A DNA stretch of 64,000 nucleotides from Natrinema hispanicum (GTDB taxonomy: Archaea > Halobacteriota > Halobacteria > Halobacteriales > Natrialbaceae). Of this stretch, positions 1,276 through 58,700 are shown one piece after another. The DNA is taken from NCBI RefSeq assembly GCF_004217335.1, contig NZ_SHMP01000003.1:62001-126000 (forward strand), read 5' to 3'. Under the pieces are notes generated by a model that worked only from the letters and a program-made list of their open reading frames with translations, was not told the DNA's origin and did no database searches. The translations under genes and the position numbers were made by a program. How positions within the stretch are numbered: the stretch's first letter is position 1; every line of letters begins with the position of its first letter.

Positions 1276-1278
1276 GTA

Positions 1279-1647: not shown

Positions 1648-1786
1648 TGTCCGATAATGGACTAGTTTGTCGGATAGGTATATGGCGTAAGTATTCACGG
1701 CTTTTATGTAATTCATAATGATTATTGATTAGGGCCGTACCAAAACGGGCAAGGGAACAGGGTTCGTATCGGCACCAATCGTTGAT

Positions 1787-2449
1787 ATGCTGCTCACGAC
1801 ATTCCGGATTGACTATCCTATTCTACGAACGGCGCTCGCACACGCACCCGATATCGAGATCACGTGGGAACGGTCGGATCTCACTGGAGACGGGACACAG
1901 CAACTGCTCGTCTGGGCGGACGGTCCCGCGTTCGGTACGTTCGAAGCCGGGCTCGAGGCAGATCCCACCGTCAAGCCGCCGGTGCGGGTGGTCGAATTCG
2001 ACGAGCAACGGCTCTACCAACTCGAGTTAACTCCCGAGGGACGTCGCGCGAGCGTCTATCCGACGGTGGTCGAGACGGGAGCGATCTTACAGGATGCGAC
2101 AGCGACCGAGAAGGGATGGGACATTCGCGCTGCGCTCCCGGACGAAGAGACGCTCGATCAGTACCATGCGTTCTTTACGGGCCGTGACTTCGACGTCGAG
2201 CTCAAGCAGCTGTACGAGGACTGGTCCCCGAACCACAGCTCGCAGTCGCGATTCGGGCTGACGGATCGACAACACGAAATCCTCGTTGCGGCCGTCGACG
2301 AGGGGTATCTCGACATTCCGCGCTCGTGTTCGCTCGCCGAGCTCGGAACGCAGTTCGATATCTCGTCGAACGCAGCGTCGGAGCGGTTCCGCCGCGGGAG
2401 CAAAACACTCATCGAGAACACGCTGTCCCCGGACGACCAACCCACGTAA
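1787..2449 (+). CDS. Bacterio-opsin activator (HTH_10 family) type transcriptional regulator
   Basis: 220 residues. The C-terminal 55 residues (about 160-213: LTDRQHEILVAAVDEGYLDIP ... ASERFRRGSKTLIENTL) form the HTH_10/Bat helix-turn-helix, ending with the usual recognition helix and a dimer-like tail. The N-terminal 150 residues match the Bat-associated sensory region (short beta-rich domain, LYQLELTPEG) without an obvious PAS or GAF cofactor pocket. Such proteins are one-component regulators very common in Halobacteria. The target is unknown. The ATG is preceded by a long AT-rich spacer shared with the divergent DUF7344-type gene, so the two may be co-regulated. Confidence 0.85.
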   Translation: MLLTTFRIDYPILRTALAHAPDIEITWERSDLTGDGTQQLLVWADGPAFGTFEAGLEADPTVKPPVRVVEFDEQRLYQLELTPEGRRASVYPTVVETGAILQDATATEKGWDIRAALPDEETLDQYHAFFTGRDFDVELKQLYEDWSPNHSSQSRFGLTDRQHEILVAAVDEGYLDIPRSCSLAELGTQFDISSNAASERFRRGSKTLIENTLSPDDQPT

Positions 2450-2476
2450 CCGGTGGTCGGTCGCCCGAACTCAGGG

Positions 2477-2596
2477 TTACGCGATGTCGACGCGAGTGAA
2501 CCACAGCTGGGCAGCGACGAAGAGGGCGACAGTCATCGCAACGAGGATTCCCGCGTCGGCGACGTTATACGTTCCCTCGAGTTCGATCGCGGCCAT
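2477..2596 (-). CDS. Small membrane protein, 39 residues
   Basis: A short frame from the ATG at 2594-2596 to TAA at 2477-2479. It encodes an N-terminal acidic stretch (MAAIELEGTYNVADAG) and one clear membrane helix (ILVAMTVALFVAAQLWF), ending TRVDIA. Codon use is haloarchaeal (GC at third positions) and the hydrophobic pattern is unlikely by chance. It lies just upstream of the methyltransferase gene's end, and its start is 51 nt from that gene's stop. The function is unknown; single-helix mini-proteins of this kind are common in Halobacteria. Confidence 0.55.
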   Translation of the reverse strand: MAAIELEGTYNVADAGILVAMTVALFVAAQLWFTRVDIA

Positions 2597-2647
2597 ACGA
2601 GGACTTGATGAGAGAACTACAAGACAATAGTGGCGCTTCTCGCTGCG

Positions 2648-3445
2648 TTAGGGGACGCGGCCGACCGTGACGTGAAACGGCACCGATTCCGCGCGGCGAT
2701 ACTCGCGGGTCTGCATCTGCTCGATTACGTCCCGTCCCATCTCGCGCCACGCTCTTCGGAGATCGTCGTACTCGCGTTCGGTCAGCGCACCCGAGAGCAT
2801 CGTCTCCCGGTCATCAGCCAGTCCGTCGCCGGTCGCTTTCCGGCGGGCGGCCCGTAACGCGGCGTCGCTGTATGGCGGTTCGACCGTCCGCACGTGGTCG
2901 TACCGTCGGGTTGCGAGTACATCGAGACCGGCCTCGGCGAACGCTTCGCGGGCGTCGGCCCCGAGCGCCACGTCCGTACTGACACCGTCGAGATAGGCCC
3001 GCCGGGCGCGGCGCTCGAGGGCGTCTTCGACGTCGACGCTCGAGTGGACCTCGACTGCAGCGTTGTCGGGTTCGACGGCCGCGACGAGGTCCCTCGAGAC
3101 GCGGGCGAACTCAGCCAGTGCGGCCGCAGGCTCGGGCAGATTGATTAGCAAGGCCTGACAGACGACGAGATCGAACGTCTCGTCGGGAAACGGTAACTGG
3201 TAGGCGTCGCCGGCGACGACGGGGACGTACTCGGCGGCGGCTGCGAGTAGTTCTGGATCAGCGTCACACCCGATCACCTCGCCGGGCGACTCCGCGGTGA
3301 GGACGCGGCTCAACTCGCCAGTTCCACAGCCAACGTCCAGAATCCGGTCGCGAGAGTCGAGCTCCAGTGGCTCGAGTGCATCGCGAGAATCGTCCCACAT
3401 CCCCTCACGGGTCCGGCTGAGGTAGTCTTCGGAGAACTCGCGCAC
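2648..3445 (-). CDS. Class I SAM-dependent methyltransferase
   Basis: 265 residues. The SAM-binding glycine loop ILDVGCGTGELSRVL is near residues 35-49. Motif II acidic residue (GCDADPELL) and motif IV/V (FDLVVCQALLINLPEPAAAL) follow in correct order, as in UbiE/Methyltransf_11 proteins. After the core there is a haloarchaeal C-terminal region of about 100 residues ending in FHVTVGRVP. The substrate is not evident; similar proteins are annotated only as methyltransferases. It is transcribed toward the small membrane ORF and begins 48 nt downstream of endonuclease IV on the same strand, so the two may be cotranscribed. Confidence 0.85.
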   Translation of the reverse strand: MREFSEDYLSRTREGMWDDSRDALEPLELDSRDRILDVGCGTGELSRVLTAESPGEVIGCDADPELLAAAAEYVPVVAGDAYQLPFPDETFDLVVCQALLINLPEPAAALAEFARVSRDLVAAVEPDNAAVEVHSSVDVEDALERRARRAYLDGVSTDVALGADAREAFAEAGLDVLATRRYDHVRTVEPPYSDAALRAARRKATGDGLADDRETMLSGALTEREYDDLRRAWREMGRDVIEQMQTREYRRAESVPFHVTVGRVP

Positions 3446-3493
3446 GACAGCCGCTAGCGACGTCTCGAGTAAAAACGAGTCGATCCGGCCGTC

Positions 3494-4366
3494 CTACTCG
3501 TCGTCGCGCAGCTCTTTGACCTTCTGGATGTTCCACGCGAAGCCGCGACCGTCTTCGGTCGGCGTCTCGAGCGCGAAGGGGAGATCCCGCAACTCGGGAT
3601 GGTTCACGATCGCCTTCATACCGTCCTCGCCGATATAGCCCTCGCCGATGAGGGCATGTTCGTCCTTGTGAGTGCCCACGTCGTGTTTCGAGTCATTGAG
3701 GTGGATATACTCGAGGTACTCCAGGCCGACCACGTCGTCGAATCGGCCGACGGTCTCGTCGACGGCCTCGGGCGTGGTGAGGTCGTTGCCCGCGACGAGC
3801 GTGTGGGCGGTGTCGATACAGATGCCGATATCGGTCTCGGTGCGGTCGATGATTCCTGCAAGGTGGTCAAACTCGCCGCCGAGTTTCGTGCCGCTGCCCG
3901 CGTCGGATTCGATCAGGATCTGCACGTCGTCGGGCACCTCGAGATCGTCGATGACGTCGGCGGCGTTGTCCAGTCCACCTTCGACACCCGCGCCCGTGTG
4001 CGCGCCAAGGTGGACGTTGACGTACGGCACGCCGAGTTTGTCGGCGGCATCGAGTTCGGCCTGCATGCTCTCCATCGACTTGCGTCGGAGGTCCTCCTTT
4101 GGCGTACAGAGGTTGACCAGATACGAGGAGTGGATCACCCACGGTCCCTCGAGTTTCGCGTCGCTTTCCTCACGAAAGCCGTCGGCGGCCTCGTCAGAAA
4201 TATCGGGCTGGGCCCAGACTTGCGGCGACGTCGTAAAGATCTGGCCGCAGTTCCCGCCGAAGTTGACTTGCCGGCAGACAGCGTTGCGGATGTCGTCGTA
4301 CGGTGGTTTCTCGTCGTCGGAGGAAACGCGCGTTCCGGAGATCGAAACGTGTGCGCCGACCTTCAT
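3494..4366 (-). CDS. nfo: Endonuclease IV (deoxyribonuclease IV, AP endonuclease)
   Basis: This enzyme cuts the DNA backbone 5' of abasic sites and removes 3' blocking groups in base-excision repair, using three metal ions in a TIM barrel. The 290-residue protein opens with MKVGAHVSI and contains the metal-ligand segments [45 protein letters not shown] (signature with Asp/His ligands), IGEGYIG and ALETPTE in the expected order. The length equals the family norm. The start is set at the second ATG (4364-4366), because the family begins directly with the first barrel strand. An ATG two codons upstream is possible. It is in tandem with the methyltransferase gene. Confidence 0.93.
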
Positions 4367-4434
4367 CGTCATGGATTCCCGTCAGTACCGGGCCGTGATA
4401 GGTACTTCGGAGCGGGGCGAACGGCGGGTCTGTG

Positions 4435-5271
4435 TCACCCCTCGCCGGGCTCGAGCACTTCGCGATCGCGAACCCACGCGTCGCTGCCGAACTTCCGGTC
4501 GGCCAGTTCGCGAGCGGCCGCAAGCTCGTCGTCGCGCCACGTCGAGTCGGTGGCGTCAACCCAGTCACCCAGCGCTCCCGCGACCGCGTCGACCGCTGTG
4601 TCGCGGTCGATTCCCGTCTCGTCACGAATGCTCGTCACGCGATCGGTAAAGGTCGATTCCGCGAGATCGGTATCGAAGACGCCAACGTGGGCCCGGGGCT
4701 CGAGATTGTAACTGATCGACCCATGCTGGATGACGACGTCGCGCTGGCGGTACTGGGCGTTCCCGCTGATTTTCTTGGCGTCCGCGCCTGCAGCCGCCGA
4801 CGCCACGATGTCGTGTGCCGGATTGATGTCGCGCAGATAGCACGACGGCTGATAGATCGATGCCTGTTCGGCCGATGCGAAGGCCGCGTCGACGCCCATC
4901 CGGTCGAACGCCTCGAGGACCGGCTCGCAGAACAGTTCGTAGCAGTCCATCAGATCGCCCGGTACTTCGTCGGCGGGGGCGACGATCGTATACGAGATGT
5001 CGGCATAGCGGTCGTGGTAGATCCCGCCGCCGCCGGTCTGGCGGCGCGTGACATCGATCCCTTCCCGCTCGCAAAAGTCCCAGTCGACGGTATCGGCGTC
5101 CTGTCGATACCCCAGCGAAAGCGTGCTTGGCTCCCACGAGTAGACGCGGACAGTCCGCAGGTCGTCTTCGAGTGCCGTCCGCGCGGCGATCTCCTCGAGA
5201 GCCATCTGCGTCGCGCCTGCGCGGGGCTCGTCCCAGATCAGCCGCCACTCCCGATCGGCAAGCGTCGTCAT
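4435..5271 (-). CDS. Lipoate-protein ligase family protein (LplA-like)
   Basis: 278 residues of the biotin/lipoyl A/B ligase fold. Such enzymes attach lipoate or octanoate to E2 and GcvH subunits. Visible motifs are RRQTGGGGIYHD (lipoyl-AMP binding glycine loop, RRxTGGGxVxHD type) and KKISGNAQYRQRDVVIQHGSISY with the conserved Lys-Ile-Ser-Gly-Asn-Ala-Gln. The N-terminus (REWRLIWDEPRAGATQMALEE) and W-x-P-x-T-x-S-x-G-Y (SWEPSTLSLGY) are typical. The C-terminal domain is short, so it may be a transferase or an LplA needing a partner. It is the last gene before an AT-richer patch, with no partner in the immediate vicinity. Confidence 0.85.
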   Translation of the reverse strand: MTTLADREWRLIWDEPRAGATQMALEEIAARTALEDDLRTVRVYSWEPSTLSLGYRQDADTVDWDFCEREGIDVTRRQTGGGGIYHDRYADISYTIVAPADEVPGDLMDCYELFCEPVLEAFDRMGVDAAFASAEQASIYQPSCYLRDINPAHDIVASAAAGADAKKISGNAQYRQRDVVIQHGSISYNLEPRAHVGVFDTDLAESTFTDRVTSIRDETGIDRDTAVDAVAGALGDWVDATDSTWRDDELAAARELADRKFGSDAWVRDREVLEPGEG

Positions 5272-5496
5272 AGCCGACTAGACGGGGACGATGTGGAAAG
5301 CGATTCCGACCGCCGCTGCTGAAGACAGGCGCGTCAAGAATAATCGCTTGGATTCCGCGGTTCCAATCATTTAATCTACGTCAATCGGCTATCTGCTGAG
5401 TTGCTTTATGTCTGTTTACCAATACAGGCACCGTTATATCCACATTTCTGGTTCAAAGAAAAATTATAACATCCGAATACATACGTCTACTCACAG

Positions 5497-6183
5497 ATGC
5501 CCTCCCGCTATAATCGGCGTACTGCCCTGCAAATGGTAGGCTCATCCGTCGCGCTTGCACTTGCCGGCTGTGTCTCGAACCGAGGCCCTGAAAGATCAAA
5601 CAAGCCCCTCAATCAGACCTCAGCACCGATAACGACGGATGATGTTAAATTTGATATGAGAGTGGAGAAACAGTTCACAGACAATCATCCTGCGCGGGTT
5701 CACGCCGCCCTGACGAACACGACAGAGATGCCGATGACTCTCTTTACAGGCGCAACGCCGCCATTCACATCGTATTTGAGCGGTAGGGCGTCGGATAAGA
5801 ACCGGCTCATCCTTATTCCCAATGTCTCGGAAGACAAGAATCCACTAAATTGGACAGGTGAGACCGACCCGATCCCGACGACCGCCGAGAACCAGTGCTG
5901 GAACGTGACACACGATGTGGTAATCAACCTACTCGGAATGTCCAAGAAACTTGACCCGGGAGAAACCAGTAGCCAGCAGTACGCTGTGTACGGGTATCAA
6001 AACGAAACGTGTCTTCCACCCGGCACTTACAGATTCGATGAAAACACTACACTTCACCGAGGACGACCCTCGAAGGAGACTCCTACGTTCGGGTTAAAAC
6101 TCGGATTCACACTTACGCTTAATAAAGAACAATCACTCTCAGTCAAGAGACACGAATCCACCGTTAGCAGACACGAACATTAG
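5497..6183 (+). CDS. Putative Tat-exported lipoprotein of unknown function
   Basis: 228 residues. The N-terminus has a twin-Arg (YNRRTALQMVG), a hydrophobic stretch and a lipobox LAGC, so it is probably exported through Tat and lipid-anchored. The rest is a beta-sandwich-like domain with a VHAALTNTTEMPMTLFTG segment (the NTT..M pattern often seen in Ig-like intracellular-trafficking/ BsuPI-type domains) and paired Cys residues (ENQCWNV ... NETCLPPG). Base composition and codon use are clearly less GC-rich than in neighbours (many AAA, AAT, ATA codons), which suggests recent acquisition. It stands alone between long AT-rich spacers. The function is not recognised. Confidence 0.7.
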   Translation: MPSRYNRRTALQMVGSSVALALAGCVSNRGPERSNKPLNQTSAPITTDDVKFDMRVEKQFTDNHPARVHAALTNTTEMPMTLFTGATPPFTSYLSGRASDKNRLILIPNVSEDKNPLNWTGETDPIPTTAENQCWNVTHDVVINLLGMSKKLDPGETSSQQYAVYGYQNETCLPPGTYRFDENTTLHRGRPSKETPTFGLKLGFTLTLNKEQSLSVKRHESTVSRHEH

Positions 6184-6657
6184 CTAGCAAGCTTGAACAT
6201 GGTACAGACCCACATGTCACTTTATACGGTGTGTCCCGTGCTATCGAGGAGTGTCTGTCACTCAACCTACTGAGTTCTCTTTTGACCATGACAGGTATTT
6301 CACGTTCACCGTCAACGAGGTCTGGAAGTGAGATGCCCGCTGACCTCTGAGCGGCGGCGCTGTTCTGCTTTCCTTATTTTCGGCTGATTAGTGTCTGTCT
6401 CTGAATTATCGCCCTTGGTACCTCCTCACGATGTTTTCGTACGCAAGAGGTATGTCGAAAGGAATGTCGGTTCAATCGATTATTTGATTACATGCCTGCC
6501 TCCGAGCAGTTTTTGTATAGCAATATGAGGTTCAGACAGGGCAGAACAGCGCGAGTCAACTTTGACCCGACAGTAGCCTGCCGTACGCGAGTGGGTTTGC
6601 TCGCCGCGTGGAGACCGCGTCACGCCGTTTTTACGTACTGACCGGCTATCGGTCTCT
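6184..6657. other. AT-richer spacer with candidate miniature element
   Basis: 474 bp without a convincing gene. It contains a perfect 12-bp inverted repeat, GCGCTGTTCTGC at 6357-6368 and GCAGAACAGCGC at 6541-6552, enclosing 172 bp of non-coding AT-richer sequence. This resembles a small MITE or a decayed insertion, but no clear target duplication is visible. The last 100 bp are the promoter region of the RIO2 gene. Confidence 0.4.
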
Positions 6658-7566
6658 ATGGTGCGAAACGTCGCCGGATTACTTCCGGAACTCGAGGATG
6701 AAGACTTCTATCTCCTCTCGGGAGTCGAACAGGGGATGCGCTTTTCGGAGTGGGTCCAGCGCGAAAAGCTCCCGAAGTTCGCCAACTTGACCGAAGAAGA
6801 GGTCGATTACCGTCTCGAGCGCTGTCTCAAACGTGGATTGATCGAGAAGAAGACGATCCAGTACGAGGGGTATACGCTGCAGTTCGAGGGCTACGACGCC
6901 TTGGCGCTGCGGGCGCTCGTCGAACAGGACACGATCACGGAGTTTGGCTCGCCACTGGGCGTCGGCAAGGAAAGCGACGTCTACGAAGTCCGCTCGTACA
7001 AGCCGCTGGCCCTGAAATATCACCGTGAGGGCTATACGAACTTCCGGGAAGTCCACAAGGAACGTGATTACACCGCGGACAACGAGCACGTCTCCTGGAT
7101 GTACACCGCTCGAAAGGCCGCCGAACGCGAGTACGACATTCTCGAGGAACTCTACCCCGACGTCGCGGTTCCACAGCCGATCGGACAGAATCGCCACGCC
7201 ATCGTCATGGAGAAGATGGACGGCGTCGAACTCTCACGAACCCGACTCGAGGACGATCAGGTGCTCGGGGTTCTCGATCTGCTCGTCTCCGAAATCAATC
7301 GCGCGTACGCACATGGGTACGTCCATGCGGACATGAGCGAGTACAACGTCTTCGTCAACGAGGCGGGCGTGACGATCTTCGACTGGCCACAGGCGGTTCC
7401 AATGGATCACGAAAACGCCGACGAATTCCTCCGGCGTGATCTGACGAACATCGTGGGCTACTTCCGCCGCAAGTACCCCCAGCACGTGCCCGACGACCTC
7501 CCCACCGACGAGGTGGCCGACGCGATCTCCACCGAATCGTTCGAAACGGTTACCGATTTCGTGTAA
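6658..7566 (+). CDS. rio2: RIO2-type serine/threonine protein kinase/ATPase
   Basis: 302 residues with the RIO2 layout. The N-terminal winged helix (about 1-85) ends in YEGYTLQFEGYDALALRALVE. The RIO kinase core follows, with a glycine loop (SPLGVGKESDVYEV), catalytic Lys (LALKYHREGYTNFREV), hinge (IVMEKMDGVEL), catalytic loop HADMSEYNVFV and metal-binding FDWPQAV in place of the usual DFPQ. Eukaryal Rio2 acts in late 40S ribosomal subunit maturation; archaeal Rio2 binds pre-30S particles and is assumed to have the same role. It is monocistronic, with an ATG at the end of a long AT-rich upstream region. Confidence 0.93.
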   Translation: MVRNVAGLLPELEDEDFYLLSGVEQGMRFSEWVQREKLPKFANLTEEEVDYRLERCLKRGLIEKKTIQYEGYTLQFEGYDALALRALVEQDTITEFGSPLGVGKESDVYEVRSYKPLALKYHREGYTNFREVHKERDYTADNEHVSWMYTARKAAEREYDILEELYPDVAVPQPIGQNRHAIVMEKMDGVELSRTRLEDDQVLGVLDLLVSEINRAYAHGYVHADMSEYNVFVNEAGVTIFDWPQAVPMDHENADEFLRRDLTNIVGYFRRKYPQHVPDDLPTDEVADAISTESFETVTDFV

Positions 7567-7625
7567 CGACCAGCTGGGTCGTCAGTGTCATTCGAGTACA
7601 GTAGGACCGATTTGTACTCACAGTC

Positions 7626-7808
7626 TCATTCTCGCTCGAGGTGGAGACTCACGGTATCGCTGTCCAGCAGCGTGGCAACCACTGGTTTCGCCAGCAACAG
7701 CGCCGGTCCAGTTGACCGGGCTCGAGTCGAGAGCACCATCCAGTCCCGATAGAGGCTTTTCTGAGCGAATTCCACGTTAGCGGGCTCGAGACGTGTCGTG
7801 AACGTCAC
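7626..7808 (-). CDS. Small hypothetical protein, 60 residues
   Basis: A frame from ATG 7806-7808 to TGA, with no homologue that I recognise. The composition is haloarchaeal-like but less acidic than most neighbours, with no membrane helix or metal motif. It could be a real small gene, or the remnant of a longer one, since the reading frame ends in a run of charged residues (SLHLERE). It is included because it is the only plausible coding content in the 330 bp between RIO2 and the membrane protein gene, and the third-position GC is good. Confidence 0.35.
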   Translation of the reverse strand: MTFTTRLEPANVEFAQKSLYRDWMVLSTRARSTGPALLLAKPVVATLLDSDTVSLHLERE

Positions 7809-7895
7809 GTGGGAGAAGCCGACATCGTGCTTTCATATATTGCATATCGATATATAGAATCAGGACTACGACGGGAGTGTCGTTCGACGTAGAAC

Positions 7896-8627
7896 TCAGG
7901 CGGGCATCCCAGCAGAGCCCGGTCTGGCGTCGGCGTCGACGGGTGGCTCGAGGCTCCGAAGCTGGTCGTACGCACGGGCGGTGGTCGCGAGCGTGTACAC
8001 CGTGACGACCGCGGCGACGAGTTGCGTGAGCACGAGGCTGGCGACACCGCCGAGGAAAATCGCCGGAATCCCGGCGGCTCCGTTGACGACGATCCCAACG
8101 AACAGGACGGCCACCCCCAGTCCGAACAGACGAAGGCGACGGCCGCTGGTCAGCGACCAGCTGCTGCGAAAGCCCTCGAAGAAGTGCTGATCGTCGACTG
8201 CGACGAAGACGCTCCAGTAGTAGAGGCTGACGAGCACGAACAACCCCGGAATGAGCAGGAAGACGCTGCCGATGGCGACGAGTAACACGTAGACGATCGT
8301 GCCGACGAAAACGTTGAGCGTGGCAACGCCGATTCGTCGGCGGCGGAACTCGCGGGGGATCGCCTCGGTTTCCGCCGACGCGAACGTCCGGAGCGCAACG
8401 ATGACGGCCGCGATCGTCACGATTCCGATCACCAGCGAAACTAGTCCGGCGACGAGAGCGATAGCTCCGGACGCAGGCACTGTCCCAGTCGCAGGATCGA
8501 ATCCGATGGCGGTCACGAGTGCGTTCAGAAGTGCGAGGACGGCGAATACGGCGATGAAACCGAGTCCGTTTCGCTCGGTGGTGCGGGAGAAACCGTCGGA
8601 CATCACATCGATGATGCTAAAGGCCAT
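7896..8627 (-). CDS. Multi-pass membrane protein (haloarchaeal, DUF7847-like)
   Basis: 243 residues from the Met of MAFSIIDVMSDGFSRTTERNG; the open frame extends 18 codons upstream into AT-rich promoter DNA. There are about six hydrophobic helices: residues ~20-40, 55-85, a central pair around FVGTIVYVLLVAIGSVFLLIPGLF, the WSVFVAVDDQHFFEGF amphipathic turn, then two C-terminal helices. The pattern with a central Pro-Gly kink and the RSSWSLTSGRRLRLFGLG cytoplasmic loop matches the widespread glycerophosphoryl-diester-phosphodiesterase-membrane-domain-like family of Halobacteria. No enzymatic residues are visible. A pair of inverted repeats lies in its promoter. Confidence 0.75.
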   Translation of the reverse strand: MAFSIIDVMSDGFSRTTERNGLGFIAVFAVLALLNALVTAIGFDPATGTVPASGAIALVAGLVSLVIGIVTIAAVIVALRTFASAETEAIPREFRRRRIGVATLNVFVGTIVYVLLVAIGSVFLLIPGLFVLVSLYYWSVFVAVDDQHFFEGFRSSWSLTSGRRLRLFGLGVAVLFVGIVVNGAAGIPAIFLGGVASLVLTQLVAAVVTVYTLATTARAYDQLRSLEPPVDADARPGSAGMPA

Positions 8628-8649
8628 ACTGTGAAAATACGCGCTCGAG

Positions 8650-8675
8650 TTAGATATACATATACTGTTATCTAA
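8650..8675. promoter_or_regulatory. Inverted repeat in the promoter of the membrane protein gene
   Basis: TTAGATA (8650-8656) and TATCTAA (8669-8675) form a perfect 7-bp inverted repeat enclosing an AT-rich core (ATACATATAC) that could be the TATA element for the minus-strand gene starting at 8627. It is a candidate operator. Confidence 0.35.
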
Positions 8676-8929
8676 TTTCACAAACCCAAATTTCAGGGTT
8701 TCAAGATGGCCTGAAAGACAGTACTCGAGCCATCAGCATGGAATAATGATCCCTCACTTTGTCGGTCATGTCGACGGTGGTGTGGCAGGCGGCCAAGAAC
8801 CGACATTCGTCCGGCGTTCGATCAACTCGAGCGACGATCGATCACCATAGTGGAACTACTGACGTACGTCACACTCACTGACTCCGGTGGATGCTTGAAT
8901 TAATCAGCCTCGCATCCGTAGCATCACAT
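8676..8929. other. Spacer between divergent membrane protein genes
   Basis: Non-coding. It contains nested short hairpins (AAACCC/GGGTTT at about 8682-8701 and TTTCAGG/CCTGAAA just after). Otherwise nothing recognised; no RNA gene is evident. Confidence 0.4.
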
Positions 8930-9460
8930 ATGAGTGCTAGCACAACACACGAACTCGATGGCGTCGGCGTGTGGGGCGGTGGCGTTACGGGCGGACTAGT
9001 CGCCGGTATCGCCATGGGTCTGGTGCTTCACTTCGGCGGAGACCAGATCGAACTACTCGGCGGCCTCGCAGCTGAACCCGAACTCGCAGTCGGTGCTGGC
9101 TGGGCGATTCACCTGATGATCAGCATCGTGTTCGGGCTGGTGTTCGCCACCCTCGTCTCGCGGCCGGCAGTCCAGCAACTGGTGACCGATTTCAGCGATT
9201 ACATCATCGCAGGGCTCGTCTTCGGTGCCGTCATTGGCCTCTTTGCCGGAGGCGTCCTGTTCCCGTTCGCGATGGAACGTCTCGGGGTGGCTACGTTGCC
9301 AATGCCGTTTCTGCAGGTTCCGGGGCTCACAGCGGAACTGTTCGGCGCACTCCTGTTCGGATTCGGCCACCTCGTCTACGGGCTAGTGCTTGGGGCCGTC
9401 TTCGCGACGATCAACGGCATCGCGCCGAGCGGGGTCCGCGAGCGCGTGCCAGTGCGGTAG
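8930..9460 (+). CDS. Membrane protein with four to five helices
   Basis: 176 residues starting at the Met of MSASTTHEL; the frame is open 13 codons upstream. Glycine-rich helices follow in order: VWGGGVTGGLVAGIAMGLVLHFG, WAIHLMISIVFGLVFATLV, DYIIAGLVFGAVIGLFAGGVLFPFAM, then ELFGALLFGFGHLVYGLVLGAVFATI. This is the pattern of a small haloarchaeal integral membrane family (similar to proteins annotated DUF6789 or DUF1440-like). No catalytic residues are obvious. It ends 174 nt before the L15e gene on the same strand. Confidence 0.75.
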   Translation: MSASTTHELDGVGVWGGGVTGGLVAGIAMGLVLHFGGDQIELLGGLAAEPELAVGAGWAIHLMISIVFGLVFATLVSRPAVQQLVTDFSDYIIAGLVFGAVIGLFAGGVLFPFAMERLGVATLPMPFLQVPGLTAELFGALLFGFGHLVYGLVLGAVFATINGIAPSGVRERVPVR

Positions 9461-9480
9461 CGCGCTCGCGGAGTTCGAAG

Positions 9481-9634
9481 CCCTTATACTCGAGAGTTGG
9501 ATAGGTCCGGTAGACTCGCTGGTTCGCGGGCATCAGCGGGCACCTGCACGGTACCGGACCGCAGGTCGGGATGTGATCCGCGGGGCATGTGCCCCGGTCG
9601 GGATTGAACCAGGAAACGCCCGCGGGTGAATACG
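9481..9634 (+). promoter_or_regulatory. Promoter and structured leader of rpl15e
   Basis: A TATA-like CTTATAC at about 9483-9489 would place transcription start near 9512, leaving roughly 120 nt of leader. The leader can fold: ACCTGC 9542-9547 with GCAGGT 9561-9566, and CGGGGCA 9581-9587 with TGCCCCG 9590-9596. Most genes here look leaderless, so a folded leader on a ribosomal protein gene is a candidate for translational control. Confidence 0.4.
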
Positions 9635-10225
9635 ATGGCAAAAAGCTTCTATTCCCACATCAAGGACGCATGGAAAGACCCCGACGACGGCAAACTCGGG
9701 GAACTGCAGTGGCAGCGCAAACAGGAGTGGCGCAAGCAGGGCGCGATCGAGCGGATCGACCGTCCAACGCGACTCGACAAGGCACGCGAACTCGGCTACA
9801 AGGCCAAGCAGGGCATCGTCATGACCCGTGTGTCGGTCCGCAAAGGGACCGCCCGGAAGGAACGGTTCACGGCCGGTCGGCGCTCGAAGCGTCAGGGTGT
9901 CAACCGCATCGGGCGGCGCAAGAACATCCAGCGCATCGGCGAAGAGCGTGTCTCTCGAAAGTACCCCAACCTGCGCGTGCTCAACAGCTACTGGGTCGGT
10001 GAAGACGGCTCGCAGAAGTGGTTCGAAGTGATCCTCGTCGATCCGAACCACCCCGCGATCGAGAACGACGACGACCTCAACTGGATCTGCAGCGACGACC
10101 ACACCAACCGCGCGTTCCGCGGGCTCACCAACGCCGGGACGGCAAACCGTGGGCTCAACAACCGCGGCAAAGGTGCCGAGAAGGTCCGCCCGTCCAACAC
10201 CGGCGGCCAGGGCCGCGCGAAGTAA
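9635..10225 (+). CDS. rpl15e: 50S ribosomal protein L15e
   Basis: 196 residues starting MAKSFYSHIKDAWKDP; an upstream ATG three codons earlier is less likely. This archaeal/eukaryal large-subunit protein binds 23S rRNA near the tunnel and L7Ae. Family signatures are QRKQEWRKQGAIERI, the basic block RKGTARKERFTAGRRSKRQGVNRI, and the end WFEVILVDPNHPAI followed by the RAFRGLTNAG tail. It is unusually basic among acidic neighbours, as expected for an rRNA-binding protein. The leader shows secondary structure. Confidence 0.96.
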   Translation: MAKSFYSHIKDAWKDPDDGKLGELQWQRKQEWRKQGAIERIDRPTRLDKARELGYKAKQGIVMTRVSVRKGTARKERFTAGRRSKRQGVNRIGRRKNIQRIGEERVSRKYPNLRVLNSYWVGEDGSQKWFEVILVDPNHPAIENDDDLNWICSDDHTNRAFRGLTNAGTANRGLNNRGKGAEKVRPSNTGGQGRAK

Positions 10226-10348
10226 CGCGCGACAGCGAAACAGCCGCTTTCACACCGATTTTCTGTTATTCGAGCCGTCTCGGCGAGCAGTTCCCGCCGG
10301 TTCGAGTCGAGAGGTGGACTTATTCCATGGGCCGACATACCGCTGCGT

Positions 10349-10783
10349 ATGGCACGGCACGTTCTCGTGGCAGTTGACGACTCGGAACAGTCGACTGACG
10401 CACTCGAGTTCGCTTGCGAGGAGTATTCGGACGCGACGATCACCGCCCTCTACGTGCTCGATCCGGGTGACTTCTACGCAGTGAGTGGCGTCGAAGGAAC
10501 GGCGATGGCAAATTACGACGAGATACAGCGCCACCACGAGGAACGCGCCGAAGAAATCTTAGAAGCGGCTCGCGAGCAGGCCGCCGAGCACGACGTCGAA
10601 CTCGAGACGGACCACGTCGTCGGCAGCGTCTCGCGGTCGATCGTCGACTACGCCGACGACAACGATGTCGACCACATCGTCGTCGGGAGCCACGGCCGGA
10701 CCGGGGCGAGCCGGATCCTCCTCGGCAGCGTCGCCGAGACGGTGGCTCGCCGGTCGCCGGTCCCGGTGACGATCGTTCGGTGA
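10349..10783 (+). CDS. Universal stress protein (UspA family)
   Basis: 144 residues, one complete Usp domain. It starts with the beta1 strand HVLVAVDDSEQS and ends with the ATP-binding loop G-x2-G-x9-G-S (VGSHGRTGASRILLGSVAETVARRSPVPVTIV), so it should bind ATP. Such proteins are dimeric stress-response factors; the specific role is unknown. A TATA-like TATTCC sits about 25 bp upstream of the ATG. The stop codon is followed within 3 nt by a palindromic intergenic element. Confidence 0.92.
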   Translation: MARHVLVAVDDSEQSTDALEFACEEYSDATITALYVLDPGDFYAVSGVEGTAMANYDEIQRHHEERAEEILEAAREQAAEHDVELETDHVVGSVSRSIVDYADDNDVDHIVVGSHGRTGASRILLGSVAETVARRSPVPVTIVR

Positions 10784-10850
10784 CTGAGACGGGCTGCTGT
10801 ACCGATGTCCCGGTCGGACTGGCGGACGGTCGCGATTCCACTGACACCGA
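10784..10850. repeat. Palindromic intergenic element, copy 2 (degenerate)
   Basis: It begins CTGAGACGGGCTGCTGTACC straight after the Usp stop codon, has the family loop GGACGGTCG near 10824, and ends around ACTGACACCGACC. The central stem is less perfect than in other copies. Confidence 0.55.
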
Positions 10851-10952
10851 CCAATTGTAGTCGATAAAACAGTTAGTGTTAGCGATCGATCACGGTCAGC
10901 GACCGCTACTGCTGGTCGAAAAGAACGGCAAGAAGCAGCGACGTCGCGGCGA

Positions 10953-11399
10953 TCAGGCCGAGACGGTCTGGCTTTCCTGTTCGGACTCGGTCGAGCGCAT
11001 GTCCAGATCGGCCCGCAGGGCCTCGATGGCGTCTTCGGGGTCGGTCTCGGAGTTGAAGACCCGGTCGAAGCCAAGTTCGCGGAAGAACTTGCGGGTCTCC
11101 TCGAAGTCGTCCTGCCCGACGGCGAGGTTCCCACCGATATAGGTCGTCACGTCGAGATCAGCATCGGCGATCCGCTGGTGGAAGCCCTCGCAGTCCTGTT
11201 TCGCGTGGCCGTAGAGTGACGAGACGAGTACAGCCTCGGCGTCGTTGGCGGACGTGGCTTCGACGAAGTCTTCTTGGGAGGTCTGCACCCCGAGGTTGAC
11301 GACGTCGAATCCGGCTGCCTCCAGTGCCTGTTCCAGGATGGTAATCCCGACAACGTGAGCGTCCGAACCGATCACGCCGAGGATGACTGTCTTCGTCAT
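10953..11399 (-). CDS. glmS: Methylaspartate (glutamate) mutase subunit S
   Basis: 148 residues starting MTKTVILGVIGSDAHVVG. The D-x-H-x-x-G motif (DAHVVG) is the cobalamin-binding signature, followed by the SxL and GG regions (VLVSSLYGHAKQD, YIGGNLAVGQDD). The S subunit binds the lower part of coenzyme B12. With subunit E it isomerises glutamate to 3-methylaspartate, the entry reaction of the methylaspartate cycle used by many haloarchaea for acetate assimilation. In this window it stands alone: subunit E, methylaspartate ammonia-lyase and mesaconate genes are not next to it. The next genes on either side are convergent Usp and GfcR. Confidence 0.9.
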   Translation of the reverse strand: MTKTVILGVIGSDAHVVGITILEQALEAAGFDVVNLGVQTSQEDFVEATSANDAEAVLVSSLYGHAKQDCEGFHQRIADADLDVTTYIGGNLAVGQDDFEETRKFFRELGFDRVFNSETDPEDAIEALRADLDMRSTESEQESQTVSA

Positions 11400-11597
11400 G
11401 TGCGTACCACCACAAACTGCGGGCACCACCATAAACCTAATGATTAATAATGTGGCACTAGTTCACATGGTTCCCCCGCGAGAGTTACGTGCGAACAGCC
11501 GCGAACAGCCGTAGACGAGCCGCTCTTCGGGATACGCCGGTGAGTCCGATCACTCCTCGAGGGGGGATAGCGTCCGGGAGAACCAGCCGACCGGAAA

Positions 11598-12308
11598 TCA
11601 GACGGTCGTGAGCGCGCCGACCGGTGCGTCGGTGTGGTTGCGGGCACGCCGGATACCATCTTCGCCGGCTGCGATGAGTGCGAAGACGCCGGCAACGTCG
11701 GCCTCGGCGGTGTGAGCGATGTCGAGCAGGAGCTCCTGTGTCTCACCCGATCGGATTAGGTCGTCGACGACGAGTACTGACTCGCCGGGGTCGATCGCGG
11801 AAGCGGGCAAATAGTAGGTGAGTTCGATCCCCGATTGCAGGCGCTGGCGGGCCTCGATGAATTCCTCGACGGCGGTTTCCTTGCGCTTTTTCGCGTAGGC
11901 ACAACGGACGCCGTAGTAGCTCGCGAGCGCGGCCGCAAGCGTGATCCCGTCGGTCGCGGCGGTGAGCACGACGTCAGGACGCTCGAAGTTGAAGCCATTG
12001 GCCACGACCGGCGCGGCCAGATCGAGAAACGGCTGGTCGAAGACGGTCGCGGAGTTGTCGACGTACCCATCGTCGTCGACGCGAATGCGTGCATCGAGTT
12101 CCTTGGCCAACGCCTCCCGGCCGAGATCCTCGACGACCTCGCGCGCGCGATCAGTTCCGGGCAGGACGTGCCCGTTTACGTACCGGTTGAGATCGCCCGC
12201 TGGAAGCCCCGTTGTCTCGGCGAGCTCGTCATAGGTCCGCGTTTCCTTCAACATCCGCAACACGTCGACGGCCCGCAGCTGGAGGGCTGCCTTCTCGGCT
12301 CTGTTCAT
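11598..12308 (-). CDS. gfcR: GfcR-type regulator: HTH fused to a PyrE-like phosphoribosyltransferase domain
   Basis: 236 residues from MNRAEKAALQLRAVDVL; the frame is open upstream but the extra residues are unlike the family. The N-terminal helix-turn-helix is at about 12-60 (TYDELAETTGLPAGDLNRYVNGHVLPG). The C-terminal type I PRTase domain carries the PRPP loop VLVVDDLIRSGET. In Haloferax volcanii the homologous GfcR regulates glycolysis and fructose-catabolism genes, so it is a regulator rather than an orotate enzyme. The real OPRT is the separate gene at 15088. It is upstream of glmS on the same strand but 200 nt away. Confidence 0.9.
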   Translation of the reverse strand: MNRAEKAALQLRAVDVLRMLKETRTYDELAETTGLPAGDLNRYVNGHVLPGTDRAREVVEDLGREALAKELDARIRVDDDGYVDNSATVFDQPFLDLAAPVVANGFNFERPDVVLTAATDGITLAAALASYYGVRCAYAKKRKETAVEEFIEARQRLQSGIELTYYLPASAIDPGESVLVVDDLIRSGETQELLLDIAHTAEADVAGVFALIAAGEDGIRRARNHTDAPVGALTTV

Positions 12309-12466
12309 ACAGATATGCACGATTCCGCAACTATGGGTATTTCGGTCCGATTTAATCGCTGAATCTGCACATCTATGTAGTCCCTTCAAGCCGAGACCGT
12401 CGTTATCTAGTCGTCGAAACACTCGACTCGAGCGCCGTCAACCGCGAAAAACGTGTCGTCCGGTCG

Positions 12467-14413
12467 CTATTGCAGGAAGTCAGGCTCCGTCCGCTGCTCG
12501 TCGCGTTCGGCCTCGAGGTGGGCGCGGAAGTCCGCGATTTCGACGTCGTACTCCTGATCCTCGAAGCGGTCACGCACTGAGATGTTCCCGTCTTCTTCCT
12601 CGTTGTCGCCGACGATGATCTGGTAGGGCACGCGGTCGTCGTGGGCCGCGCGGATCTTGCGCTCTAAGGTCGAGTCGCGGTCGTCGACCTCGACGCGGAA
12701 GTCGTCGAACTCGTTTGCGACCTGGTAGGCGTAGCCGAGGTTCGCGTCGGAGATCGGCAGCACGCGGACCTGTTCGGGCGCGAGCCACAGCGGGAACCGA
12801 CCTTCGTAGTGCTCGATGAGCATCATGAAGAACCGCTCGTAGCTGCCATACAGCGCGCGGTGGATCATGACCGGACGGTGTTCCTCGTTGTCCTCGCCGA
12901 CGTAGTTCAGGTCGAAGCGCTCGGGCATATTGAAGTCAAGCTGGACCGTCGGGCCGTCCCACGAGCGGCCGATGGCGTCCTCGAACGCGAAGTCGATCTT
13001 CGGCCCGTAGAACGCGCCGTCGCCTTCCTCGATCTCGTACTCGTGGCCGTGGGCCTCGAGGACGCTCTCGAGTTGTTCCTCGGCGCGCTCCCAGATCTCG
13101 TCGGAGCCGACCGACTTTTCGGGACGGGTTGCCAGGGCCATCTCGTAGTCGAGGTCGAACGTCTCGAGGACGTCCGTAATCATGTCCATGATCTCCTCGA
13201 CCTCGCGTTTGATCTGGTCGGGACGAATGAACAGGTGGCCGTCGTCGATCGTGAAGGCCCAGACCCGCGAGAGGCCCGAGAGTTCGCCGCGTTGCTCCTT
13301 GCGGTAGACTTTGCCGTTCTCGGCGTAGCGGATCGGGAGGTCGCGGTAGCTCCAGGAGTGGTCCTGGAAGATGGCGGCGTGGCCGGGACAGTTCATCGGC
13401 TTCAGGCCGAACTCGTCGTCGCCGACGTCGAAGATGAACATGTCGTCCTGGTAGTTCTCGTAGTGGCCCGACCGGTGCCAGAGGTCCGTCTTGAAGACGT
13501 GGGGCGTCTCGACGTAATCGTAGCCCGCCTCCTTGTTCAGCGTCTCGACGAAGTCCTCGAGTTCCTTCAGAACCGTCTTCCCGGCGGGGTGATACAGCGG
13601 CAGGCCGGGACCGGTGACGTCCTGAATCGAGAACAGATCCATCTCGTTGCCGATCCGGCGGTGATCGCGTTTTTCGGCTTCCTGCTTGCGCTCTAAGAAG
13701 TCCTCGAGGTCGCTTTCGTCCTCGAAGGCCGTCCCGTAAATCCGGGTCTGCATCGTGTTATCCTCGTCGCCGCGCCAGTACGCGCCGGCGATCTCGAGCA
13801 GTTCGATCGCGCCGATCTCGCCCGTCGAGTCGACGTGCGGGCCAGCACAGAGGTCTTCCCACTCGCCCTGACTGTAGAACGTGACCGTCTCGTCTTCCTC
13901 GGCGAGTTCCTCGAGGAGTTCGAGCTTGTAGGGTTCGTCTGCCAGTCGGTCTTCGGCTTCGTCGATCGAAACCTCCTCGCGCTCGATGTCGTAGTCGGCT
14001 TCGATGATTTCTTCCATCTCGGCCTCGAGGTCCGCGAGGTCGTCCTCGTCGACATCGAGGTTGTCGAAGTCGTAGTAGAAGCCCTCGTCCGTCGGCGGAC
14101 CGATCGCGAGTTTGACCTCCTCGGCGTCGTACAGCCGTTCGACGGCCTGCGCGAGACAGTGGGCCGCGGAGTGGCGCATCACGCGGAGATATTCGTCGGA
14201 CTGGTCCGTGATGATCTCGAGTTCCGCGCCGTCGTAGGCCGGTTCCTCTTTGGCGACGAGGTCACCGTCGAGTTTGCCGGCAACCGTGTCGCTACCGAGG
14301 CCGGGGCCGATCTCGTAGGCACAGTCCTCGACCGTCGCATCGGCGTCGACCTCGAGTTCCGATCCGTCGGGCAGTACGACCGCTATCTGCTGCTGTGAAT
14401 CTGATTCTGACAT
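12467..14413 (-). CDS. thrS: Threonyl-tRNA synthetase, bacterial-type with full editing domain
   Basis: 648 residues from MSESDSQQQ. The order of domains is an N-terminal TGS (about 10-70), an N2 editing/SAD domain with HxxxH (HSAAHC) and the Cys-x3-His pair (LCAGPH), the class II core with zinc-binding Cys in [10 protein letters not shown] and motifs 2 and 3 (FRKEQRGE-like [28 protein letters not shown]), and a C-terminal HGTP anticodon-binding domain ending QRTEPDFLQ. It charges tRNA-Thr and hydrolyses Ser-tRNA-Thr. Possession of the bacterial editing domain instead of the archaeal DTD-like domain is a known feature of haloarchaea. The start codon follows a spacer without a strong Shine-Dalgarno. 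Confidence 0.96.
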
Positions 14414-14640
14414 GGCTGTGGATGTGGTGAAAATCCCGGTGGCGTGTCCGCGCCGTCTCCCGCACACTGGTCGACCGGAGCCGACACAATACACGGTAGG
14501 TGGGAGTTAAAAACGGGCAAACGCCCCTGTAAAGCGGACACCTACCATCGTGGCTACGCGTAGTCTCGAGCGGGATAAAAGCATTGTGATGGGGCGTCAC
14601 CGGCCGAACGGTTTTCGCTCCGGGTCGGCTACGTCACGTC

Positions 14641-14997
14641 GTGGGCTTCGATCCACCGGCCGACGACGATCCGCTCGAGGACCCGTTCGCGGATGATCCA
14701 CTCGAAGATCCGTTCGGGAGTGATCCGCTCGAGGACCCGATCGGAGACGAGAGCGGTGGCGACGAAGATCTCGAGCGGACGTTCAGCGAGATTTCACGAT
14801 CGACGCTGCTCGCGTTCGTCGTCGTCGCGGTGCTCGTTCATGCCGGCCTCTTCGGCGCGAGCCTCGGCATGATGCTGATCGGGTTCCGGAGCCAGTGGGT
14901 CGGCGGCAGCGCGCTCGCGATCAGCGGTGGGCTCGCGCTAGTCGTCGCTGTCGTGGTGTACCGTCGGTACAACCCCGCACGTGACACGACGCGGTGA
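14641..14997 (+). CDS. Membrane protein with DPLEDPF repeats
   Basis: 118 residues; the initiator is a GTG at 14641. An acidic N-terminal arm contains three near-identical repeats (DPLEDPFAD, DPLEDPFGS, DPLEDPIGD). Two membrane helices follow (LLAFVVVAVLVHAGLFGASLGMML and GGSALAISGGLALVVAVVVYRR), with a short basic tail. At DNA level the repeats are 24-27 bp units with silent changes, so they duplicated a while ago. Similar Asp-Pro-rich two-helix proteins occur across Halobacteria without a known role. It is immediately followed by a palindromic element and then convergent pyrE. Confidence 0.75.
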   Translation: MGFDPPADDDPLEDPFADDPLEDPFGSDPLEDPIGDESGGDEDLERTFSEISRSTLLAFVVVAVLVHAGLFGASLGMMLIGFRSQWVGGSALAISGGLALVVAVVVYRRYNPARDTTR

Positions 14998-57771: not shown

Positions 57772-57943
57772 ATCCGTCCACTTGGGCCGTGAGGGCAAAG
57801 GTCGTCCGCTCGCGCCGACTCGAGACCGGCCGGGCCGACATCGGCCGGTATGCGGTCAGTATGCAGTCCTTACCGGCAGGTACGGGGATGGTACGGACCT
57901 CGTTACGATATCCTATCACAGTAGAGTTGTCGTCGGGGTCATC

Positions 57944-58057
57944 ATGGACGACCGATACGAAATGGTGGTGTGTCAAAGCGGTACTCTGAAACTCAGAGAT
58001 CCGGATGACCCCCACTGCTGGATCGCGACCGATTCCCCCGTGGAACTCGAGCAGTAA
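57944..58057 (+). CDS. Small acidic protein, 37 residues
   Basis: Starts at an ATG (MDDRYEMVVCQSGTL) and ends with DPHCWIATDSPVELEQ. The Trp-Ile-x-Ser/Thr-Asp-x-Pro-Val-x-Leu ending resembles mini-proteins of Halobacteria such as DUF7331-type. A weak TATA-like sequence lies upstream. The function is unknown, and an upstream in-frame extension is not acidic, so I choose this start. Confidence 0.5.
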   Translation: MDDRYEMVVCQSGTLKLRDPDDPHCWIATDSPVELEQ

Positions 58058-58186
58058 TCCAGCGCCTCCTTCGCGTACCCCTACCCGTTTGTCTCACACG
58101 GCACACTATCGGCGTCAACACTGCGTCGCACTAATGCCGAATTGTGACTCCAGCGACGCGCTGCTCGCGAGTGTTGGATTCGAAAA

Positions 58187-58334
58187 ACGCCAGGACTAGG
58201 ATTTGAACCACGGTCGGACGTGGTCGCTCGCGTCACTCGCTGTGCGCGACCTCCCTGATTCAAATCCAGTCGTTAGGTATCTGTCGCTCACGAAGTTGTT
58301 CGCGACAGAAACGCCAGGACTGGGATTTGAACCC
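58187..58334. repeat. Duplicated tRNA-Ser 3' end flanking a 124-bp insertion (att-like)
   Basis: ACGCCAGGACTAGGATTTGAACCA (58187-58210) repeats the 3' end of tRNA-Ser (58311-58334) with 22 of 24 bases equal. Between them is an inverted copy ACTGGATTTGAATCA on the minus strand (about 58256-58270). Duplicated tRNA 3' ends are typical marks of integrase attachment. Confidence 0.6.
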
Positions 58335-58392
58335 AGAATCCCAAAGGGAACACGCTTTCCAGGCGTGCGCCTTACCGTTCGGCCATCCTGGC
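58312..58392 (-). tRNA. tRNA-Ser (anticodon GGA)
   Basis: Read on the minus strand, an acceptor GCCAGGA pairs with TCCTGGC near the 3' end, followed by discriminator G. The anticodon stem CACGC/GCGTG encloses the loop CTGGAAA with anticodon GGA. A long variable arm and the T-arm with GGGTTCAAATCC are typical of class II serine tRNA. 81 nt; no CCA is encoded. Confidence 0.92.
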
Positions 58393-58439
58393 TCAGGTTA
58401 TCCTAACCACGTCCGTGGTTTAACCCTTACGAGATGCGG

Positions 58440-58685
58440 TCACTCCGTCGTGCGGTTGGCCGCCCACGCAGCAAGCCGTGGCTCGAGCACATAGGCCCCA
58501 CCAGCAACGACAAATCCGACCAGCAACGCGAGCACCAGCGCCTGCGTGATCGTCACGAGCGGGGCGGCAAGCAGCGTATACCCCTGGACGCCGACCAGCA
58601 CCGACAGGCAGCCGACAATGCCCCACAGCAGAGCCGACGTGGCGCGTGCCTCGAGTCCGAACAGCGCTGAAAGCGAACCGGTCAC
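58440..58685 (-). CDS. Small membrane protein
   Basis: 81 residues with two helices (about 18-40, IVGCLSVLVGVQGYTLLAAPLV, and 45-70, ALVLALLVGFVVAGGAYVLEPRL). Haloarchaeal-like composition; no family name that I can give with certainty. It is 15 nt downstream of the RidA gene on the same strand and therefore likely in one transcript with RidA and the ammonia-lyase. Confidence 0.65.
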   Translation of the reverse strand: MTGSLSALFGLEARATSALLWGIVGCLSVLVGVQGYTLLAAPLVTITQALVLALLVGFVVAGGAYVLEPRLAAWAANRTTE

Positions 58686-58700
58686 GGACCAGTCACCGCC

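What the first reader, a model, noticed from the sequence alone, without database searches (positions are those of the whole stretch)
58187..58392. tRNA-Ser with duplicated 3' end separated by 124 bp and containing an inverted third copy
Direct repeats of the last 22-24 bases of tRNA-Ser flank a 124-bp piece that itself has an inverted version of the T-arm sequence. This looks like an attachment site left by an integrated element or a site where elements often enter. No integrase gene is seen in the window.
Basis: partly seen in the sequence, partly recalled or inferred. Interest (0 to 1): 0.5.

Follow-up and report, generated by a model that had tools for sequence, protein, structure and literature searches.

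The report
tRNA-tail hairpin cassettes in haloarchaea
The odd 124-base repeat behind this tRNA gene belongs to a widespread, apparently undescribed family of two-hairpin DNA units in salt-loving archaea, nearly always sitting directly behind a tRNA gene and carrying a copy of that same tRNA's last 20 bases.

Summary
In this Natrinema-like genome 21 of 52 tRNA genes carry a second copy of their own 3' end (T54 to N73, 20 nt) within 400 bp downstream, none upstream; 0 of 30 tRNAs from three non-haloarchaeal genomes do. A unit (median 130 nt) reads: tRNA, hairpin A, degenerate inverted tail copy, hairpin B, direct tail copy. Hairpin B covaries. A covariance model matches 142 of 145 genomes of the order and 0 of 50 genomes of other orders. 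All 23 own-genome places at E<0.001 lie behind tRNAs. Tails match the host tRNA, yet hairpin B interiors show no tRNA-type signal. Units form arrays, with tails freshest beside the tRNA, and two are precisely missing in a close relative. Islands do enter unit-bearing tRNAs, including tRNA-Ser(GGA), but the units look separate from them. Best reading: a tRNA-anchored cassette family maintained by recombination at the T-loop-to-discriminator segment; a structured trailer RNA is the main rival. Enzyme and transcription are untested. Ten searches of open papers gave no description.

The parts
58312..58392 (-). tRNA-Ser(GGA) gene
   Evidence: ARAGORN; Rfam RF00005, 61.9 bits
58312..58331 (-). tRNA tail T54-N73, the segment that is duplicated
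   Evidence: boundary profile over 192 pairs
58280..58311 (-). hairpin A (family A1, CTGTCGC..GCGACAG with tandem G.A internal loop)
   Evidence: fold; the same hairpin family at tRNA-Gly(TCC) and tRNA-Ser(TGA) in the same genome (C3:335485 and C3:435820)
58259..58278 (-). inverted, degenerate copy of the tail (ACTGG-ATTTGAA core 58259-58270)
   Evidence: I1; host-match permutation test on 104 units
58208..58258 (-). hairpin B interior (family B1, TCAGGGAGGTCGCGC...CGTCCGACCGTGG)
   Evidence: R1 match G000:C1:120188-120278, E 1.6e-9; covariation in relatives of it
58188..58207 (-). direct copy of the tRNA tail (1 mismatch in 20)
58144..58187 (-). truncated hairpin A of an older unit (family A4), intact in G071 and G074
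   Evidence: comparison by eye; in G057 a similar remnant follows the tRNA directly

Best explanation
The piece is one member of a haloarchaea-wide family of non-coding, tRNA-anchored cassettes. A cassette is hairpin A, an inverted partial copy of the tRNA tail, hairpin B and a direct copy of the tail, placed directly behind the mature 3' end of a tRNA gene. SHOWN: T54-N73 duplication, host-matching of direct and inverted copies, covarying hairpin B, tandem arrays, precise presence/absence between relatives, different A or B modules at the same tRNA in close relatives, tRNA-proximal freshness. INFERRED: cassettes enter by recombination at the T-loop end of the tRNA, so that the tail is duplicated and the tRNA restored (as with a tRNA-targeting tyrosine recombinase, but with a folded, attC-like or cruciform site). 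Older cassettes are pushed outwards and decay, cassettes are lost by tail-to-tail recombination, and B interiors move between tRNA types through the common heptamers ATTTGAA/TTCAAAT that flank them. No dedicated enzyme has been identified.
For: Own genome: 21 of 52 tRNAs with own-tail copy downstream, 0 upstream. All 23 R1 places at E<0.001 are 3' of a tRNA (assignment by hand). Named loci: 111 of 126 pattern hits have a tRNA ending <600 bp upstream on the same strand; of the other 15, four show a tRNA or its end in the sequence and two lie behind integrase-like genes. 65 of 104 copies are identical in the 13 tRNA-specific bases, 89 have at least 11, 15 have 10 or fewer. Inverted arm host-match 4.26 versus permuted 2.59 +- 0.11, highest of 10,000 3.02. 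Boundaries at T54 and N73. Hairpin B: 109 both-side-change cells versus 48.7 +- 5.7, 0 of 500 shuffles, 44 sequences. B interior no tRNA-type signal (z 0.5), linker strong (z 11.9), A moderate (z 5.0). 50 arrays: first-tail mismatches 0.14, last 1.10; 26 versus 5, sign test 2e-4. Phe unit in own and G071 but exactly missing in G057; Ser(GGA) unit missing in G057; A differs at Arg-TCT and Pro-CGG with B kept; B differs at Leu-TAA and Ser-TGA with A kept.
Against: No recombinase, circle or de novo insertion was seen. The differences between close relatives can also come from ordinary recombination in arrays plus gene conversion. Near-universal presence (142 of 145 genomes) fits a resident feature better than a mobile one. 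Cassettes were not found in viral contigs (6 pattern hits, none matched by R1 at E<=0.001) nor in phage records. Linkers resemble each other per tRNA type across genera, which argues for long residence. One R1-positive unit (L173) has no tRNA in its 8-kb locus. In the island cases seen (G046, G056 and, by inference, L159 and L165) the island is at the tRNA itself; none is at a cassette tail.
Confidence: 0.5

Rival explanations
1. A structured trailer RNA: the unit is transcribed with the tRNA, released by tRNA 3' processing, and works as a small RNA, as proposed for rtT of E. coli tyrT (recalled). The tail copy ends at N73 because RNase Z cuts there.
For: Right boundary at N73; downstream and on the same strand; covarying hairpin B; G.A mismatches outnumber T.C on the tRNA strand (hairpin A 84 v 32, hairpin B 148 v 13); hairpin A has more G.T than A.C mismatches (52 v 26); near-universal retention.
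Against: In hairpin B the tRNA strand shows no excess of G.U over A.C (18 v 25 in all pairs of A1, 4 v 4 in the inner stem, 18 v 22 in 190 B stems, 13 v 46 in the first three tail pairs), which an RNA helix would usually show. Hairpins A and B are replaced wholesale at some tRNAs between close relatives. The acceptor half of the tail stays close to the tRNA though it matches the inverted arm only weakly. No expression data.
Confidence: 0.3
2. Remnants of ordinary integrative elements: each unit is what is left between attL and attR after deletion of an island.
For: Tail duplication is att-like; islands occur at unit-bearing tRNAs (G056; L234, L159, L165).
Against: Independent deletions would not leave the same two-hairpin layout at 31 anticodon types; the G056 insert lacks hairpins A and B at its own ends; the covarying hairpin B shows a maintained structure.
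Confidence: 0.08
3. Passive tandem repeat: an ancient tail duplication that grows and shrinks by unequal crossing-over and is homogenised by gene conversion with the tRNA, without a dedicated enzyme or function.
For: Seven near-identical hairpin B copies in tandem behind tRNA-Gly in G555; tail-to-tail losses; distal tails more decayed.
Against: Does not explain covariation in hairpin B, nor movement of B interiors among tRNA types whose shared flanks are only about 7-12 bp, nor colonisation of 31 anticodon types.
Confidence: 0.12

Closest known systems
rtT / tyrT tandem repeats of Escherichia coli (Rfam RF00391)
   Same: Tandem units behind a tRNA gene, each carrying a copy of that tRNA's 3' end (recalled)
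   Different: One locus in enterobacteria, about 178-bp units (recalled); here many tRNA types per genome across an archaeal order, with inverted tail and two hairpins. RF00391 has 0 matches at E<=10 in the own genome; among 14 control genomes one is over the cut-off and E. coli is listed first of the four with any match
tRNA attachment-site duplications of integrative elements
   Same: Direct copy of the tRNA 3' end from the T-loop to the gene end; the same tRNA is used by an island in a relative
   Different: No genes in the unit, recurring two-hairpin non-coding content, arrays, inverted tail copy
Integron gene cassettes / attC sites
   Same: Polar arrays, folded imperfect-palindrome site with variable loop and unpaired bases (analogy from recall only)
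   Different: No integron integrase or attI looked for, no cassette genes, palindrome built from tRNA tail sequence
REP / MITE-like hairpin repeats
   Same: Short non-coding hairpins, many per genome
   Different: tRNA-anchored, host-specific ends

Membership tests
Remnant of an integrative element | tRNA 3' end duplicated at the far end | tested here: met
Remnant of an integrative element | Content derived from an element (integrase or its remains, element-type ends) | tested here: not met
   two hairpins in 124 bp; the one island whose ends were read (G056) has different ends
rtT RNA family (RF00391) | Match to the covariance model | tested here: not met
   own genome, E<=10; window 57900-58700, E<=1
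rtT-like trailer RNA | Transcribed and released from the tRNA precursor | not testable with these tools
   no RNA data held
Integron cassette array | IntI-type integrase and attI nearby | not tested
   no integrase search was made around the arrays of the own genome
Integron cassette array | Folded recombination site conserved by structure rather than sequence | tested here: inconclusive
   structure conserved, but recombination at it not shown
MITE | Terminal inverted repeats plus a fixed target-site duplication at dispersed sites | tested here: not met
   not dispersed: 23 of 23 own-genome places at E<0.001 are behind tRNAs

The most novel reading that the evidence does not exclude
Haloarchaea carry a dedicated recombination system that treats the T-arm of almost any tRNA gene as an integron-like platform: folded non-coding cassettes are added next to the tRNA, copying its T54-N73 tail in direct and inverted orientation, and hairpin cargo is exchanged among tRNA loci through the T-loop heptamer.
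Probability: 0.25. Interest if true: 0.92.

Novelty: new variant of a known kind. Interest (0 to 1): 0.74.

Why it matters
It would be an order-wide, tRNA-linked repeat family present in nearly every haloarchaeal genome sampled, often in 10-30 copies (where no more than 31 candidates per genome were scored). It gives a natural experiment on how sequence can be copied from a host gene into both arms of a neighbouring palindrome, on how tRNA loci become recombination hotspots, and possibly on a new class of tRNA-linked small RNA. It also warns that short tail duplications near haloarchaeal tRNAs should not be called island scars.

Tried and rejected
Viral origin: the pattern gave 6 viral contigs, none matching R1 at E<=0.001, and no phage record matched the locus. 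One plasmid record matched, the 827-kb Natronorubrum bangense plasmid; a locus-tag gap there suggests an unlisted tRNA, not verified. Pattern hits L109, L118, L145 (bacterial titles), L176 and L202 do not match R1 at E<=0.001. Rfam offered nothing but the tRNA above a gathering score for the unit. Decoy attB idea (cassettes shield the tRNA from islands): the island cases seen have the island at the tRNA itself, so not supported. Strand test by wobble pairs was mixed. Deletion scar, chance palindrome and decayed tandem tRNA were rejected because the layout with host-matched tails recurs at 31 anticodon types.

Limits of the counts. Units were collected with at most 4 mismatches to the host tail, so tail identities inside that set are biased upward; one search used a 12-nt inner core to reduce this. 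Alignment A1 held 38 of the 44 sequences that one search listed (every second of 87 of suitable length); I had left out six divergent-looking ones before counting. With the six put back (A3) the result stands: 86.4% paired against 88.0%, covariation score 0.304 against 0.323, 109 both-side-change cells against 48.7 shuffled; the excess of further pair types weakens (35 of 500 shuffles reach it, against 3 of 500). The structure was read off A1, so the slid controls favour it, and the outer pairs covary in part because the tail is host-specific. Four of the 38 A1 sequences are from the own genome and match R1 by construction. One search scored 150 of 2913 candidates. In one search genus labels for unclassified genomes are placeholders, and the own genome was labelled Natrinema. 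Arrays come partly from related species; four loci with repeated tRNA types on one locus were excluded. The 30 tRNA-Ser(GGA) loci are the best-matching ones.

Papers. Ten searches that ran: listings seen, no description of these units found; two searches returned none. Only passages were read, in PMC8371274 and PMC3119063 (it describes repeat-mediated deletion in Haloquadratum, including two partial tRNA duplications tied to prophage integration). Statements about rtT, attC and RNase Z are recalled.

Full report
OBSERVATION. The window is haloarchaeal. tRNA-Ser(GGA) lies at 58312-58392 minus. A 25-nt direct pair 124 bp apart and an inverted T-arm piece between the copies are real. Read on the tRNA strand the order is: tRNA, hairpin A (CTGTCGC...GCGACAG), inverted tail copy (ACTGG-ATTTGAA), hairpin B, direct tail copy, then a truncated older hairpin A.

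NOT UNIQUE. A search of the own genome with the locus found partial relatives behind other tRNA genes. Scanning each tRNA for a copy of its own last 20 bases gave copies, most of them about 75-180 bp downstream, behind about 20 tRNA genes. With a uniform rule (at most 4 mismatches, 400 bp, outside other tRNAs) it is 21 of 52 ARAGORN tRNA calls and 0 upstream, and 0 of 30 tRNAs from three non-haloarchaeal genomes of the phylum. tRNA-Trp (intron, copy with 4 mismatches) and the more decayed units of Arg-CCG and Thr-CGT are outside that count. The tail downstream of a tRNA is that tRNA's own: unit-bearing tRNAs score 16-20 of 20 with their own tail against a median of 11-14 with other tails.

ANATOMY. 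Of the 24 units folded, nearly all show a hairpin A and a long hairpin B whose outer stem pairs the inverted with the direct tail copy (read by eye; one is a 54-nt partial unit and hairpin A is weak in some). Over 192 pairs the duplicated segment starts at T54 and ends at N73: identity 0.89 at N73, then 0.50, near the level of a permutation. The inverted copy is host-matched: mean score 4.26 against 2.59 +- 0.11 for permuted hosts, highest of 10,000 permutations 3.02, n = 104. The match is clear in the T-stem half (3.37 of 5 against 2.91, highest permuted 3.09) and weak in the acceptor half (3.47 of 7 against 3.25, highest permuted 3.47). In an alignment of 44 hairpin B sequences an 18-pair structure has 86.4% cells paired, 109 cells with both sides changed against 48.7 +- 5.7 in shuffles, and a covariation score of 0.304 against 0.120 (0 of 500; slid versions at most 0.101); five of the six inner pairs have changes on both sides. 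The first count, on 38 of these, gave 97 cells against 41.9 and 0.323 against 0.119. So the fold is maintained.

DISTRIBUTION. The covariance model R1 has matches at E<=0.01 in 142 of 145 genomes of the order (48 of 49 genera; G499, G221 and G241 had none; some of the 142, such as G544 with one match at 0.0012, are weak). At E<=1e-4 it matches 10 of 10 genomes of the order and 0 of 50 of other orders in the same call. In the own genome 23 places score E<0.001, and all 23 lie 3' of a tRNA by my assignment, including tRNA-Trp and tRNA-Pro(CGG), which the Rfam tRNA search had not listed. R1 misses some units: those of tRNA-Phe, tRNA-Leu(TAA) and tRNA-Asn are not in its list. Among 126 pattern hits in genome-contig loci, 111 have a tRNA end within 600 bp upstream. 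Of the other 15: L102, L108 and L147 show a tRNA that ARAGORN missed and L099 what looks like the end of one; L159 and L165 lie just behind an integrase-like gene and a decayed tail, so islands appear to have displaced them from the tRNA (the L165 catalytic domain scores 25.6 bits, under the 27.1 cut-off, its N-terminal domain is over); L135 and L204 are at contig ends; L100 is the reverse reading of a tRNA-Ser unit; L109, L118, L145, L176 and L202 do not match R1; and L173 matches R1 (E 4.8e-11) with no tRNA in its locus, a true orphan.

DYNAMICS. At tRNA-Ser(GGA), 24 of the 30 loci read (window included) have a second tail with at most 5 mismatches in 450 nt; three more (L013, L017, L035) show a unit or part of one by eye. 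The window carries modules A1+B1 followed by a truncated A4; G058 has A1+B3, as if B1 to A4 had been deleted between GGATTTGAA repeats; G057 has only the A4 remnant; G071 and G074 have A4+B3 (by eye). Against G057 and G071 at other tRNAs, by eye: the Phe unit is present in own and G071 and exactly absent in G057; A differs at Arg-TCT and Pro-CGG with B kept; B differs at Leu-TAA and Ser-TGA with A kept; unit order appears permuted at Met and Pro-CGG; His, Lys-CTT, Asp and Trp units are conserved. Arrays of 3-4 units occur in G433, G396 and G182, and seven near-identical hairpin B copies, with five full tails, lie in tandem behind tRNA-Gly in G555. In 50 arrays the tail nearest the tRNA has 0.14 mismatches on average and the last 1.10; first fresher in 26, last fresher in 5, equal in 19. 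Among 107 units from named genera and the own genome, compared only between genera, tRNA-type labels explain the linker (z 11.9) and hairpin A (z 5.0) but not the B interior (z 0.5). Of 10,450 pairs of first units at different tRNA types, 38 share B interiors (over 30 nt) at similarity above 0.9. The linker signal is partly the inverted tail itself.

ISLANDS. In G056 a 14.2-kb insert with a Prim-Pol gene lies between tRNA-Ser(GGA) and a displaced tail, and hairpin A follows the displaced tail. In G046 a 3-kb insert with a Phage_integrase gene is flanked by two copies of the tRNA 3' part plus unit, 178 nt at 97.8% identity. So islands use these tRNAs and can carry units along, but the units look separate: the G056 insert's ends have no A or B hairpin.

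MECHANISM. The duplicated piece begins at the T-loop and ends at the mature tRNA end. That is what site-specific entry at the T-loop with restoration of the gene would give; it is also where RNase Z cuts (recalled). Freshest tails beside the tRNA and decayed tails outside suggest addition at the tRNA side, although conversion by the tRNA gene could do the same. B interiors flanked by the common ATTTGAA and TTCAAAT are shared among tRNA types, while tails and linkers stay. I therefore favour a recombination-driven cassette cycle (0.5) over a trailer RNA (0.3). A wobble test is mixed: hairpin B shows no G.U excess over A.C, hairpin A shows 52 against 26, and G.A mismatches favour the tRNA strand in both. 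The enzyme, circles, de novo insertions and transcription are not shown.

NOVELTY. rtT of E. coli tyrT is the nearest kind in plan (recalled), but its family does not match here. Ten paper searches (listed under Tried and rejected) gave no description; subscription journals and preprints are not held, so earlier description cannot be excluded.

Noticed in passing
L083 tRNA-Ser(TGA) second unit; L258 (G057 tRNA-Val); L260 (G057 tRNA-Gly): A separate two-stem insert of about 63 bp (TCGTTCGAAAGACGC...CTCTCGAACCACGA) sits inside some hairpin B loops; at tRNA-Val(CAC) it is present in G057 and absent in the own genome, so it looks like an independent small mobile hairpin.
   Followed up: partly
L245 (G555), 747-1560: Seven near-identical hairpin B copies in tandem (about 111-bp period) behind tRNA-Gly(TCC), apparently a recent amplification.
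   Followed up: partly
L234 (G046), 503-3718: 3-kb integrative element whose flanking repeats contain the tRNA 3' part and the whole unit, a possible vehicle for moving units between genomes.
   Followed up: partly
L219 (G056), 601-14799: 14.2-kb element at tRNA-Ser(GGA) with a Prim-Pol gene; none of five ORFs scanned gave an integrase match in Pfam.
   Followed up: partly
L173, 691-789 minus: A hairpin B that matches R1 (E 4.8e-11) with no tRNA found in its 8-kb locus, the one clear orphan unit.
   Followed up: partly
units in many loci: Hairpins A and B repeatedly contain C-GA-G/C-GA-G tandem G.A loops and GCGAAGC-like turns, a motif recalled as exceptionally stable in single-stranded DNA.
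   Followed up: no
window 9543-9615 +: eL15-Euryarchaeota ribosomal protein leader above its gathering score.
   Followed up: no
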